From an uncultured Lachnospiraceae bacterium (GTDB lineage: Bacteria > Bacillota > Clostridia > Lachnospirales > Lachnospiraceae), in NCBI GenBank assembly GCA_902761225.1, contig CACWJQ010000024.1, positions 1 through 45,256 on the forward strand: DNA of 45,256 nt, read 5' to 3'. The notes beneath the pieces were generated by a model. It was given only the letters and a program-made list of their open reading frames with translations, ran no database searches and had not been told where the DNA came from. Positions within the stretch are counted from its first letter, which is position 1, and every line of letters starts with the position of its first letter. This document shows positions 5,965 through 9,091 of this stretch, one piece after another. Position numbers and translations under genes: made by a program.

Positions 5965-6567
5965 TTACTTCATCACCTCAGTGATGGCATTAAGAAGCTC
6001 ATCATATTCCTCAAATGCGGGATACTGGGGATAATCCTTCTTAAGCTGCTCGGTAGTCCTGAACAGGAAACCTGCCTTGCTGGCTTCTATCATTCCCAGA
6101 TCATTGAAGGAATCGCCGCTTGCGATGGTTTCATATCCGATGGACTGAAGAGCCCTGACGGTTGTGAGCTTGGACTTGTCACATCTCATTTTATATCCGG
6201 TGATCTCACCGTTTTCAGCAACCTCGAGAGTATTGCATAGTATGGTAGGCATTCCCAGCTTTTTCATCAGAGGCGCTGCGAACTGCTCGAAGGTGTCGCT
6301 GAGAATGAGCACCTGAGTCCTTGAGCGAAGCTCATCAAGGAACTCCTTAGCGCCGGGAAGGGGATCGAGTCCTGCTATGGTCTCCTGGATCTCCTTAAGC
6401 CCCAGTCCGTGCTCCTTCAGTATTCCTATCCTGAACTTCATAAGCTTATCGTAATCAGGCTCATCCCTGGTGGTCCTCCTGAGCTCCGGGATCCCGGTCT
6501 TCTCTGAAAACGCGATCCAGATCTCCGGAACAAGAACACCTTCAAGGTCAAGACATGTAATATACAT
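5965..6567 (-). CDS. thrH: Phosphoserine phosphatase/homoserine phosphotransferase, HAD family
   Basis: The 200-residue protein matches ThrH closely. It begins CLDLEGVLVPEIWIAF, which is HAD motif I in the ThrH form DLEG. It continues with ILSDTFEQF (motif II), a motif III lysine region around CDKSKLT, and SGDSFNDLGM (motif IV). ThrH dephosphorylates phosphoserine and can transfer the phosphate to homoserine, so it links serine and threonine synthesis. The length is typical. The start is an ATG at 6567 preceded by AAAGGA. A plausible promoter lies about 90 bp upstream. It is the first gene of the minus-strand run toward truA, with a 64-bp gap and no clear terminator between. Confidence 0.92.
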   Translation of the reverse strand: MYITCLDLEGVLVPEIWIAFSEKTGIPELRRTTRDEPDYDKLMKFRIGILKEHGLGLKEIQETIAGLDPLPGAKEFLDELRSRTQVLILSDTFEQFAAPLMKKLGMPTILCNTLEVAENGEITGYKMRCDKSKLTTVRALQSIGYETIASGDSFNDLGMIEASKAGFLFRTTEQLKKDYPQYPAFEEYDELLNAITEVMK

Positions 6568-6655
6568 CGAATCAATTCCTTTCTGTAAAAAACATGGGTA
6601 TTTTCACAGGCACACCAAAAACAGGCTGAAAAAACACCCTTTAAACCCAACTTAT

Positions 6656-6684
6656 AGAATAACAGAAAATGCCCGAAAAGTGAA
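6656..6684 (-). promoter_or_regulatory. Putative sigma-A promoter of thrH
   Basis: On the minus strand TTCACT (6679-6684) and TATTCT (6656-6661) are separated by 17 bp. The -35 box is weak and the -10 box is fair. It points to thrH, with a leader of roughly 80 nt. Confidence 0.4.
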
Positions 6685-6891
6685 CCTTTTTAAGCCGTTC
6701 CCGATGCCGGAAAAGCATGCGGATCCCAACGCTTTACCTCCGGCCAATATTATCAGTGCACCGCATCAGCTCAGTGTCACCGGACTTGAAATCCACTCAT
6801 TCAGGATTTTAAATTGTCTGAATATTAAAACAATTACTTAAACGTTATCGAAATTCTTTTAAATATTTTTATTTATTTTTTGAAAAATGTG

Positions 6892-6920
6892 TTGACAAGG
6901 ACGAATTATTAGATTATTAT
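6892..6920 (+). promoter_or_regulatory. Strong sigma-A promoter of a non-coding transcript
   Basis: A perfect -35 TTGACA (6892-6897) and a -10 TATTAT (6915-6920) are separated by exactly 17 bp, within an AT-rich upstream region. Transcription should begin near 6927 on the plus strand. It is the best promoter in the window, yet no normal gene follows it. Confidence 0.8.
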
Positions 6921-7268
6921 AAGCACATAAAACAAAAGCAAACGAAAACAGACAAGTTTTAAAGGCTTTTAGAAAGGTAGGTACACTCCAATGGGAAACT
7001 AAGAAGCAACCCATTAACCAGCACGGAGGGCAGTCCAATGTACTAGACAGATATGATGAGATAAACCGGACGTAATACCCGATCGTAACCGGATACAGTC
7101 TCAGGGAAGAAAGTGAAAACACGGCATAGGCACATGAAGTGTAGATCATCCTATGAGAGCAGAATGCACCGTTTAATATATGCTTTCGGATGAATGAGCC
7201 GTAAGAAGAATGAAGCTAAGCTTACAAAGAGGCACAGCCGGAAATTCGCAAATCGGGTTAATATATAC

Positions 7269-7310
7269 AGGAGGTATCCGCCAATGGATATTGAGGAACC
7301 CATCTACTAG
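7269..7310 (+). other. Possible leader-peptide ORF MDIEEPIY with AGGAGG
   Basis: A perfect AGGAGG (7269-7274) stands 9 nt before an ATG at 7284 that opens an 8-codon frame (MDIEEPIY) ending at TAG 7308-7310. The stop lies one base before the terminator stem, so a translating ribosome would cover the stem. It may be a real micro-ORF or a structural element that resembles one. Confidence 0.35.
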
Positions 7311-7311
7311 G

Positions 7312-7351
7312 GGCGCCATTCGATTAAGTTATCGGATGGCGCCTGCTTTTT
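7312..7351 (+). terminator. Intrinsic terminator of the non-coding transcript
   Basis: An 11-bp stem (7312-7322 with 7333-7343, one G-T pair) with a 10-nt loop is followed by a T run at 7347-7351. It acts on the plus strand only, since no U tract lies on the other side. Confidence 0.85.
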
Positions 7352-7357
7352 GTCCTT

Positions 7358-8053
7358 TTATACCAGATCCATCAGGTAGCTGTTATCATCCAGCCACTTT
7401 TTGTGTTTCTTATAATCGGGCATCCTGCTTTCTACTTCTGCCCAGAATTCACGGGAATGATCCATGTGAAGCCTGTGGCACAGCTCGTGAACGATCACAT
7501 AATCTATCGCCTCAGGCGGACACATGCACAGATGCCAGGACAGGGTTATCTTACCGGTCTCCGAACAGGACCCCCATTTGGATCTTGCTCCGGTTATCAT
7601 GAGTTCCCTGTAGGTGATCCCCATCTCCCATGCCCTGCTTTGAAGGCGCGGAGGAAGATACTCCTTAGCCCTCGCCTTAAGCCACCTAACATATGACTCA
7701 TTATCCGACCCTTCCGGGAAAAAAATATCCTTTCCGATCTTCTTTACCCTTCCGTGACCGCCTACATGAACGTTAAGCTCTTCTCCGAGATACAGGACCT
7801 TCCCGCCCTCTTCCACTTTATGATCCATGCTCTTTTCAAGCCTTGCCTGAATGCGGACATAATTGGTCCTGATCCAGCGGCTCTTTTCATTCATGAACTG
7901 ACGGATCTCAGTCTCCGGCAGGTGCAATGGTGCACTCACCACAAGCGTCCCCGTCACATCGAATTTCATTGACAGGGTACGCCTCTTTGAATATGTGATT
8001 TTTACAGGGATATCACCAAAAGTCATTTTTCTGAACAAAAAAGGCTGACACAT
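7358..8053 (-). CDS. YgjP-like (DUF45) zinc metallopeptidase
   Basis: The 231-residue protein is a YgjP/DUF45 (WLM-like) metal-dependent hydrolase. The zinc motif is VIVHELCHRLHMDHSREFW in the C-terminal third, with HExxH and the downstream His. It is preceded by the family signature ARSKWGSCSETGKITLSWHL. The function of the family is poorly defined. The start at 8053 is preferred because GGAGG lies 9 nt upstream. That ATG lies in the loop of the asnA terminator hairpin. An alternative ATG at 8026 fits the family N-terminus but has no ribosome binding site. The gene converges on the non-coding RNA terminator at its 3' end. Confidence 0.88.
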   Translation of the reverse strand: MCQPFLFRKMTFGDIPVKITYSKRRTLSMKFDVTGTLVVSAPLHLPETEIRQFMNEKSRWIRTNYVRIQARLEKSMDHKVEEGGKVLYLGEELNVHVGGHGRVKKIGKDIFFPEGSDNESYVRWLKARAKEYLPPRLQSRAWEMGITYRELMITGARSKWGSCSETGKITLSWHLCMCPPEAIDYVIVHELCHRLHMDHSREFWAEVESRMPDYKKHKKWLDDNSYLMDLV

Positions 8054-8064
8054 TACTGTCAGCC
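8038..8064 (-). terminator. asnA terminator overlapping the next gene's start
   Basis: A perfect 8-bp stem (8057-8064 with 8043-8050) with a 6-nt loop is followed on the minus strand by five T (8042-8038). The loop contains the downstream ATG (8053-8051), and the stem takes up part of the GGAGG, so terminator and translation start are one structure. Confidence 0.7.
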
Positions 8065-8080
8065 TCCATTTATGTCATTA

Positions 8081-9091
8081 TCAAAGGAGCTTTACGCCCT
8101 TCTTCTCAGCTTCAGCAGCCCATTCCTCGGGCCAGATCGAGGATTGAACCTCTCCGATATGCGCCTTTCTGAGGAAGAACATGCATATTCTCGACTGTCC
8201 GATACCTCCGCCAATGGTGTAGGGAAGTCTTCCTTCAATGATAGCCTTCTGGAAGGGGAGCTCCGCTCTCTCGGGGCAGCCTGCCTTTTCAAGCTGGCTT
8301 ACCATGGAGTCCTCATCGACTCTGATACCCATGCTGGAAAGCTCAAGAGCTATATCAAGCACCGGATAGTACACGAAGATGTCACAGTTAAGAGCCCAGT
8401 CATCATAATCGGGAGCCCTGAAATCATGAACCTCGCCGGATTTAAGCTTATCGCCGATCTGCATGAGACATACAGCACCCTTTTCCCTGGTGATGGCATA
8501 TTCTCTTTCCTTGGGAGTCTTGTCAGGATACATATCCTCCAGCTCCTGTGTGGTGATAAAGAATATATCGTGGGGAAGGATCTCCTGTATATAGTCATAC
8601 TGGATGGCCATATACTTCTCGGTCTTTCTGAGAGCTACATAGACATCGAGCACGGTATCCTTGAGAGTGGTAAAGTTTCTGTCCGCCTTAAGGATGATCT
8701 TCTCCCAGTCCCACTGATCCACAAATACGGAGTGGATGTTGTCGGGGTCTTCATCGGCCCTGATGGCGTTCATGTCGGTGTAGAGTCCTTCATCAACCTC
8801 AAAGCCGTACTTGGCAAGAGCGTATCTCTTCCACTTTGCAAGTGACTGCACGACCTGAGCCTTGCGTCCGTTCTCACATGCTATGGTGAATTCAACCGGA
8901 TGTTCGACACCATTGAGATTATCGTTAAGACCTGATTCAGGGGTTACAAATAAAGGCGCAGATACTCTCTGGAGATTCAGTCTCTCCGATAGTCTTGCCT
9001 GAAAATAATCCTTAACCGTCTTGATGGCTACCTGTGTGTCGTGAAGGTTAAGGTGTGATTTATAACCTTCCGGAATATAGATACTGCTCAT
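8081..9091 (-). CDS. asnA: Aspartate-ammonia ligase
   Basis: AsnA makes asparagine from aspartate, ammonia and ATP in the cytoplasm. The fold is related to class II aminoacyl-tRNA synthetases. The 336-residue product matches over its whole length: the N-terminal LNLQRVSAPLFVTPESGLNDNLNG, then VQSLAKWKRYAL, MNAIRADEDPDNIHSVFVDQWDWE, and the C-terminal LPYTIGGGIGQSRICMFFL. I place the start at ATG 9091 because GGAGG lies 5 nt upstream. A longer frame to 9109 is possible but lacks this. An intrinsic terminator follows directly. A plausible promoter sits about 90 bp upstream, and a small GC-rich hairpin lies in the leader. Confidence 0.95.
   Translation of the reverse strand: MSSIYIPEGYKSHLNLHDTQVAIKTVKDYFQARLSERLNLQRVSAPLFVTPESGLNDNLNGVEHPVEFTIACENGRKAQVVQSLAKWKRYALAKYGFEVDEGLYTDMNAIRADEDPDNIHSVFVDQWDWEKIILKADRNFTTLKDTVLDVYVALRKTEKYMAIQYDYIQEILPHDIFFITTQELEDMYPDKTPKEREYAITREKGAVCLMQIGDKLKSGEVHDFRAPDYDDWALNCDIFVYYPVLDIALELSSMGIRVDEDSMVSQLEKAGCPERAELPFQKAIIEGRLPYTIGGGIGQSRICMFFLRKAHIGEVQSSIWPEEWAAEAEKKGVKLL

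What the first reader, a model, noticed from the sequence alone, without database searches (positions are those of the whole stretch)
6892..7351. Strongly promoted, terminated and structured plus-strand RNA without a gene
A near-consensus promoter (TTGACA, 17 bp, TATTAT) and an 11-bp-stem intrinsic terminator bracket about 385 nt with no ORF above 60 codons. Between them I see several local hairpins (AATGGG/CCCATT, CCGGACG/CGT-AA-CCGG, an ACGGC/GCCGT-closed domain) and long purine-rich linkers. tmRNA, RNase P RNA and SRP RNA signatures are absent. The Rfam raiA motif, common in Clostridia and of unsettled function, is one family to test. If it does not match, this could be a new large structured RNA.
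Basis: partly seen in the sequence, partly recalled or inferred. Interest (0 to 1): 0.85.

Follow-up and report, generated by a model that had tools for sequence, protein, structure and literature searches.

The report
New gut-bacterial RNA ending in micro-gene
The stretch belongs to an RNA gene family of Lachnospiraceae (gut and rumen bacteria) that is not in the Rfam catalogue; it carries ribosome-docking-like motifs and ends in a coding frame of only 5 to 9 codons set against its transcription stop signal, and its job is unknown, probably something at the ribosome.

Summary
The observation largely holds: window 6892-7351 has a near-consensus promoter, a strong terminator and no ordinary gene. 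It matches no Rfam 15 family, raiA included. It belongs to a large RNA family of Lachnospiraceae: 13 of 31 genomes of its genus by BLASTN, own included, and many other genera by covariance model. Of 100 family hits inspected, 95 carry the hallmark, 4 are false, 1 unclear. Nine other Clostridia genomes hit in a sample of 341 look like chance. It is not 'without a gene': it ends in an SD-led micro-ORF (here MDIEEPIY; 5-9 codons) whose stop codon abuts or overlaps the terminator stem in 94 of 94 non-redundant copies scored. SD-like modules lie upstream; here two carry 3- and 2-codon ORFs. A central stem shows compensatory changes. Neighbours differ between genera, so it is probably stand-alone. 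Best guess, 0.4: it engages ribosomes through modules and micro-ORF, stabilising itself and titrating or sensing initiation. Against: no transcript data, weak peptide-level selection, only mild excess of 16S-tail complementarity.

The parts
6892..6920 (+). promoter: -35 TTGACA (6892-6897), 17-nt spacer, -10 TATTAT (6915-6920)
   Evidence: 11/12; kept in 13 of 13 aligned loci of the genus; TTGAC[AT]-17-TANNNT found upstream in 67 of 90 family loci with at least 600 nt held, shuffle mean 0.95
6927..7351 (+). the RNA (5' end inferred from the promoter, 3' end from the terminator; no transcript data)
6934..6970 (+). 5' hairpin, arms AAAAGC (6934-6939) and GCTTTT (6965-6970)
   Evidence: five of six pairs form in 12 or 13 of 13 loci, the sixth in 10; two pairs have a double change, one sequence each
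6973..7002 (+). module M1: purine-rich SD-like, GGTACACTCC (6980-6989), A, micro-ORF ATG GGA AAC TAA (6991-7002)
   Evidence: MG[HN] then stop in 13 of 13 aligned loci and MGY then stop in L033, L034; CAC/CAT and TAA/TGA exchanges
7025..7046 (+). module M2: GGAGG (7025-7029), micro-ORF ATG TAC TAG (7038-7046)
   Evidence: MY then TAG or TGA in 13 of 13; MDM/MDT then TGA in L034/L033
7121..7202 (+). central structured domain closed by ACGGC (7121-7125)/GCCGT (7198-7202), with inner stems
   Evidence: at least one pair with a double change in each of helices 2-5
7270..7310 (+). module M3: GGAGG (7270-7274) and micro-ORF ATG..TAG = MDIEEPIY (7284-7310)
   Evidence: counterpart in 95 of 100 inspected family hits; 94 non-redundant copies analysed
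7311..7351 (+). intrinsic terminator: stem-loop 7311-7344 and T-run, starting at the base after the M3 stop codon
   Evidence: stop-stem adjacency in 94 of 94 copies scored

Best explanation
SHOWN by sequence: an RNA gene family found, as far as sampled, only in Lachnospiraceae. Typical order: strong sigma-70-type promoter; one or more SD-like modules (GG-N5/6-CC-R-codon-N6-UAA); in some members a hairpin with the fixed loop GACGAGAAA; then an SD-led micro-ORF of 5-9 codons whose stop codon abuts or overlaps the terminator stem. INFERRED: it is stand-alone and works by engaging ribosomes. 30S subunits dock at the SD-like modules. Where the module has AUG, as in this window, they start a 2-3-codon ORF; where AUG is replaced by CCA/CCG, as in many other genera, they dock without starting, like a STAB-SD. 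This shields the RNA from 5'-3' decay and loads ribosomes beside the terminal micro-ORF. A ribosome at its stop codon cannot coexist with a fully folded terminator stem. The ribosome-occupied RNA then titrates, or reports on, initiation-competent 30S subunits.
For: The 59 real loci all have ATG, TTG or GTG as start; model R3 has no start-codon rule, though its training set is mostly ATG. One search counted ATG 72, TTG 20, GTG 2 in 94 copies, but its regex required one of the three. In-frame stop after 5-9 codons, swapped freely (TAA 58, TAG 28, TGA 8). Stem start lies -8 to +1 nt from the base after the stop in 94 of 94. In-frame 3-nt deletion between MDNEEPI. and MDNEPFQ. Start-bearing internal modules: 27 of 34 have at most two sense codons after the start before a stop, against 14.5% of 818 other ATGs. 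Core GGTAYRGWCCV (terminal modules included): 118 copies in 73 of 95 loci, shuffle mean 0.15. Neighbours differ between genera. STAB-SD precedent: an SD-like site that does not start translation is thought to bind 30S and block RNase J1 (PMC4113751, passages). A two-codon minigene possibly raises mRNA stability (PMC8708949, abstract).
Against: No transcript, ribosome-profiling or binding data. Complementarity to a recalled 16S 3' tail is only mildly above shuffles: 141 sites against 108 expected in 23 RNAs, and in four of the 23 the count is below the shuffle mean, the window's own RNA among them (4 against 4.27). AUG is absent from many internal modules (68 of 89 A-type have CCR), yet an in-frame stop triplet stays at the same place (72 of 93 non-start modules), so the module may be an RNA element rather than an ORF. 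192 of 397 family genomes gave no hit. The recurrent GACGAGAAA hairpin suggests a protein partner that this reading does not use. The next called frame is on the same strand in 10 of 24 loci outside the genus, so a cis role is not excluded there.
Confidence: 0.4

Rival explanations
1. Protein-binding scaffold or sponge: the repeated GGUACRGWCC modules and the GACGAGAAA hairpin are sites for an RNA-binding protein, and the terminal ORF is secondary.
For: Module copy number varies (L229 has seven internal modules). The stop triplet is kept without AUG. TGACGAGAAAG occurs in 21 of 95 loci against 0.1 in shuffles, each time with 3-16 pairable bases on either side and differing stem sequence.
Against: The most constant part is the 3' micro-ORF. 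CsrA, a well-known GGA-sponge partner (recalled), has no match over cut-off in 21 of 29 RNA-bearing genomes outside the genus, and the common U-type loops (e.g. UACAGU, UAUAGU) hold no GGA.
Confidence: 0.25
2. Micropeptide mRNA: the product is the 5-9-residue peptide (consensus M-D-x-[E/I]-...), for instance a signal or a regulator of the ribosome or membrane.
For: Asp at codon 2 in 83 of 94, with GAT 47/GAC 36 wobble; codon 4 GAA 36/GAG 18; synonymous fraction 0.236 against a neutral mean of 0.162.
Against: The excess of synonymous change is small (the highest of 500 simulations reached 0.264); residues after codon 2 and the length vary widely; UCC/GGA complementarity around the start codon could by itself favour GAN at codon 2 (seen in the sequences, not tested).
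Confidence: 0.15
3. Translation-coupled attenuator: translation of M3 melts the terminator and lets transcription into a downstream gene.
For: Stop codon overlaps or abuts the terminator stem in 94 of 94, the geometry of a leader-peptide attenuator. Outside the genus the next called frame is on the same strand in 10 of 24 loci.
Against: The next gene is convergent in the window and the next called frame is convergent in 26 of 36 loci (12 of 12 in the genus, 14 of 24 outside); among the ten loci whose neighbours I read, no downstream gene is common to the genera (by eye).
Confidence: 0.1
4. A divergent member of a catalogued family such as raiA.
For: Similar size and host group (recalled).
Against: No Rfam 15 match for the window at gathering score, and none at gathering score in 31 homologous loci except FuFi-1 elsewhere on one contig. 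Six matches below gathering score were seen (one, five), of unrelated families at E 0.17 to 9.9.
Confidence: 0.02

Closest known systems
STAB-SD (cry3A 5' UTR, Bacillus thuringiensis)
   Same: SD-like sequence that does not start translation, thought to bind 30S and protect RNA (PMC4113751, passages)
   Different: STAB-SD lies in the 5' UTR of a protein mRNA; here modules are often repeated in an RNA without a protein gene, and some carry start codons
minigenes / two-codon ORFs (lambda bar, recalled; axe-txe minigene, PMC8708949, abstract)
   Same: AUG + one or two codons + stop
   Different: the axe-txe one acts in cis on a longer gene and lambda bar is toxic on over-expression (recalled); here they are parts of an RNA with no longer gene
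leader-peptide attenuators (MgtL, TnaC, ErmCL; recalled)
   Same: very short ORF next to a terminator-like hairpin
   Different: no shared downstream gene seen; ORF of 5-9 codons; upstream module(s)
dual-function sRNAs (SgrS/SgrT, SR1/SR1P, RNAIII; recalled)
   Same: stand-alone RNA with an embedded small ORF
   Different: their ORFs are several times longer (recalled); no SD-module array (recalled)
raiA motif RNA (RF03072) and other large ornate RNAs (ROOL, GOLLD, OLE)
   Same: structured RNA, function unsettled (recalled)
   Different: no covariance-model match at the thresholds tried

Membership tests
raiA motif (RF03072) | match to the Rfam covariance model | tested here: not met
   no hit at gathering score nor up to E=10 in 6840-7380; none up to E=2 in 31 homologous loci
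tmRNA / tRNA-like RNA | tRNA-like domain or tag frame found by ARAGORN | tested here: not met
   0 genes in the window and in 12 homologous loci
CsrA sponge (CsrB/RsmZ type) | CsrA present in the host | tested here: not met
   24 of 44 RNA-bearing genomes searched have no CsrA over cut-off, 21 of them among the 29 outside the genus; 12 of the 15 genus members, the window's own genome included, do have it. Of 17 genomes taken as RNA-negative, 9 have it (one of the 17, G003, has a weak uninspected R3 hit)
CsrA sponge (CsrB/RsmZ type) | repeated GGA in hairpin loops | tested here: inconclusive
   A-type loops often read UACGGA, common U-type loops hold no GGA; no shuffle test of GGA was made
leader-peptide attenuator | regulated gene directly downstream on the same strand | tested here: not met
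   convergent YgjP-like gene in the window; convergent called frame in 26 of 36 loci, same-strand in 10
leader-peptide attenuator | short ORF adjoining a terminator hairpin | tested here: met
   94 of 94 copies scored
STAB-SD element | 30S binding without initiation that blocks 5'-3' decay | not testable with these tools
   only the SD-like sequence without a start codon can be seen
dual-function sRNA | translated ORF within a regulatory RNA | tested here: inconclusive
   comparative signature of translation (start and stop codon constraint); no expression data, no target known

The most novel reading that the evidence does not exclude
A new class of RNA that gauges translation-initiation capacity by its own ribosome occupancy: upstream SD modules load 30S subunits, a terminal 5-9-codon ORF places a ribosome on the terminator stem, and 3'-end formation or turnover of the RNA thereby depends on free ribosomes, so that the amount of RNA (or what its GACGAGAAA hairpin binds in members that have it) reports ribosome supply to the cell.
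Probability: 0.2. Interest if true: 0.93.

Novelty: categorically new. Interest (0 to 1): 0.8.

Why it matters
An RNA gene found in genomes titled Blautia, Dorea, Butyrivibrio and in many other Lachnospiraceae genera, with a near-consensus promoter and no entry in Rfam 15, would be one of the more widespread unexplained RNAs of the gut microbiome. Its micro-ORFs (2-9 codons) are far below the size that gene callers report. If it engages ribosomes it would be a direct handle on how these bacteria adjust translation. The start, stop, module and hairpin elements are sharply defined, so the function can be tested by simple point changes.

Tried and rejected
Rfam at gathering and at loose thresholds: no family for this RNA; six sub-threshold matches of unrelated families, and FuFi-1 elsewhere on L246. 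tRNA/tmRNA: nothing. Strict exact pattern over 397 family genomes: only 2 hits, both in the genus; too strict, as covariance models later showed. First alignment A1 mixed strands and was discarded for A2. A3 had uneven ends and A6 held minus-strand terminator matches; neither was used. Model R2 (M1+M2, sequence only) gave no confident relative beyond those already found. Long-ORF reading of the window: rejected as spurious. CsrA sponge: not general. Cis-regulator of the upstream HAD gene: rejected, because nine congeneric genomes have that gene with no promoter match and no module match outside what looks like coding sequence in the 900 nt upstream (three chance module matches, in G013 and G020), and two (G008, G021) carry the RNA elsewhere; a twelfth without the RNA beside it, G004, was not examined. 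Occurrence outside the family: ten loci from the nine other genomes hit in the class sample look like chance; two of them, L232 and L237, bear a partial likeness to M3 (CC plus a short frame) but lie at the end of, or inside, a longer frame without modules. Phage and plasmid records: no BLASTN match for 501 nt around the L246 copy; three of four IMG/VR matches are ordinary gene starts. Duplex search against the 16S tail: weak result, reported as such.

Full report
Observation. The promoter TTGACA-17-TATTAT (6892-6920) and the terminator (7311-7344 plus T-run) are present as described. By number alone such sites are not rarer in shuffles of 6000-8400 (promoter-like 4 against 3.6, terminator-like 4 against 2.1), so the weight lies in the 11/12 match and in conservation. 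The RNA between them folds better than 100 of 100 shuffles. Rfam 15 has no match for the window at gathering score; in 6840-7380 the one match up to E=10 is a microRNA model at E 9.9. ARAGORN finds no tRNA or tmRNA. Two longer frames overlap the region (+ 7210-7602, - 6859-7149); I regard both as spurious.

Homologues in the genus. BLASTN finds the sequence in 13 of 31 genomes of the genus, its own included: eleven relatives at 73-76% identity over nearly the whole query and one, G012, in two short pieces. A covariance model of the 3' end (R1) adds two with strong scores (G008, G021), so 15 of 31. The broader model R3 lists 20 of 31 at E<=0.05, of which I trust only the same 15 (the other five are weak and were not inspected). 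The alignment of 13 loci, window included, shows the promoter, the 5' hairpin, three SD-led motifs, a central domain and the terminator conserved. For a named structure of 38 pairs, 96.1% of cells pair; 8 pairs show changes on both sides against 3.0 in shuffles and at most 2 when partners are slid by 1-3 columns; the count of further pair types does not exceed shuffles (20 against 19.4). The structure was derived from these sequences, so the slide control leans in its favour, and the shuffle control ignores relatedness.

The micro-ORFs. In the genus three tiny frames follow SD-like sequences: M1 ATG-GGA-[AAC/CAC/CAT/TAC]-stop, M2 ATG-TAC-stop (MDM/MDT in G021/G008), and M3, here MDIEEPIY. Stop codons swap (TAA/TGA/TAG) and codons change synonymously. 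Between MDNEEPI. and MDNEPFQ there is an in-frame 3-nt deletion.

The family. R1 over 397 family genomes gave 13 hits at E<=0.05. Two are the window's own and a congener. Of the other 11, eight show the M3 form (L062, L063, L065-L069, L072), L062 being the least clear, and three do not (L064, L070, L071). A pattern made from these, run over a collection of one genome per species, found 40 loci: 37 with a frame of 5-8 codons followed by a terminator, and 3 chance matches in longer frames (L083, L085, L109). The titles of the 37 name Blautia hansenii and other Blautia, Dorea, Butyrivibrio sp. NC3005, Agathobacter, Ruminococcus and unclassified Lachnospiraceae; one says only Firmicutes and one Muribaculaceae (L086, probably mis-binned). 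Model R3, built from 25 diverse sequences, matched 205 of 397 family genomes at E<=0.05, 176 of 334 genera. That tally is an upper bound, because R3 also picks up strong terminators. Ninety-five carry the micro-ORF, 4 are false (L230, L286, L297, L298) and 1 is unclear (L301, no start codon). Eight of the 95 were judged by eye where the script failed (L199, L277, L290, L295, L299, L303, L304, L310); three of these (L299, L303, L304) lack the CC element before the start, so a strict count is 92. In a class-level sample of 341 genomes, 10 matched at E<=0.001: the window's own and nine others. Ten of the twelve loci from those nine were inspected; none has the promoter-module-M3 order, though L232 and L237 bear a partial likeness. 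The family is therefore confined to Lachnospiraceae as far as sampled, and patchy there.

Statistics of the 3' end. In 94 non-redundant copies from 104 RNAs (one, L105, was lost to my slicing; close relatives remain in the set) the start is ATG 72, TTG 20 or GTG 2. That regex demanded one of the three; but the 59 real loci, found by R3 without such a rule, all have one, R3's training set being mostly ATG. Frame length is 5 codons in 49, 6 in 25, 7 in 4, 8 in 15 and 9 in 1 (start included, stop excluded). Codon 2 is Asp in 83. The predicted terminator stem starts between -8 and +1 nt of the base after the stop codon in 94 of 94; the scan itself required a fold below -8 kcal/mol in that stretch. 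Synonymous change in nearest-neighbour comparisons is 0.236 against a neutral mean of 0.162, the highest of 500 simulations being 0.264. Selection on the residues is thus weak, and selection on being a short frame is the clearer signal.

Internal modules. A regex found 182 candidate internal modules in 98 RNAs; I kept 153 in 80 RNAs and dropped 29 that did not fit the core (related copies counted). Where the last loop base is A (e.g. GGUACRGACC, 89 modules), CCA/CCG stands at the start-codon place in 68, a start codon in 3, something else in 18. Where it is U (64 modules), a start codon stands in 31, CCR in 13, something else in 20. Of 34 distinct start-bearing modules (a few of them terminal modules of tandem copies), 27 meet a stop after at most two further codons, against 14.5% of 818 other ATGs in the same RNAs. 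Modules without a start codon have an in-frame stop at the same place in 72 of 93, so this triplet may be part of an RNA motif. A strict core, GGTAYRGWCCV, terminal modules included, occurs 118 times in 73 of 95 loci, shuffle mean 0.15. A further element, the exact 11-mer TGACGAGAAAG, occurs in 21 of 95 loci (shuffle mean 0.1), each time flanked by 3-16 pairable bases of differing sequence, the U-G next to the loop counted; the window has no exact copy.

Context. In the genus the RNA lies divergent from a HAD hydrolase gene and convergent to a YgjP-like or another gene. Nine congeneric genomes hold the HAD gene with no RNA signature in the 900 nt upstream, and two carry the RNA elsewhere. By a crude ORF rule the next frame downstream is convergent in 26 of 36 loci with a called frame: 12 of 12 in the genus, 14 of 24 outside, where 10 are on the same strand. 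Among ten loci read by eye the neighbours differ between genera. Tandem copies, each with its own terminator, occur (L090, L182, L221). I infer a stand-alone gene acting in trans.

Mechanism. I commit to ribosome engagement as the likeliest mode, at 0.4. The known precedents are STAB-SD (PMC4113751, passages seen) and a minigene that possibly stabilises its mRNA (PMC8708949, abstract). Against it: complementarity to a recalled 16S tail is only mildly above shuffles (141 sites against 108 in 23 RNAs; below the shuffle mean in four of them, the window's among these), many modules lack a start codon, and no experiment is at hand. A protein partner (0.25), a peptide product (0.15) and attenuation (0.1) stay open. 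A general CsrA sponge is unlikely: 21 of 29 RNA-bearing genomes outside the genus gave no CsrA over cut-off, although 12 of 15 inside the genus did.

Novelty. No Rfam 15 family matches it, and the listings of my eight paper searches show no description of it; most subscription-journal papers are not in that library, and GACGAGAAA was searched only together with two other terms. The combination of SD-like module(s) with a terminal micro-ORF set against a terminator matches no kind of RNA that I know of (recalled). I rate it categorically new as an RNA class, with function unproven.

Noticed in passing
L180, L182, L186, L188, L189, L200, L203, L204, L219, L223, L224, L273, L282-L285, L287, L304, L306, L307, L309: Exact 11-mer TGACGAGAAAG as a hairpin with invariant 9-nt loop GACGAGAAA and variable stems, in 21 of 95 family loci; in L285 and L304 it forms the loop of the terminator itself.
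   Followed up: partly
L246 9199-11015: On an IMG/VR contig a tyrosine-recombinase-like integrase gene ends about 0.3 kb upstream of a complete copy of the RNA, with a phosphoglycerate-mutase-like gene beyond (both named by eye): the RNA locus may serve as a prophage attachment site.
   Followed up: partly
L246 7373-7533: FuFi-1 RNA (RF02986), E 7.4e-33, on the same contig.
   Followed up: no
L221, L090, L182: Tandem duplicates of the RNA gene, each with its own terminator.
   Followed up: no
L084 and L086: A contig filed under a Muribaculaceae MAG (L086) closely resembles a Blautia MAG contig (L084) around the RNA; probably a mis-binned Lachnospiraceae contig.
   Followed up: no
L217 1-359: A run of GAAAGCA 7-mers upstream of the RNA at a contig end.
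   Followed up: no
L229: Copy with seven internal modules, several in near-identical units of about 56 nt, as if grown by tandem duplication.
   Followed up: no
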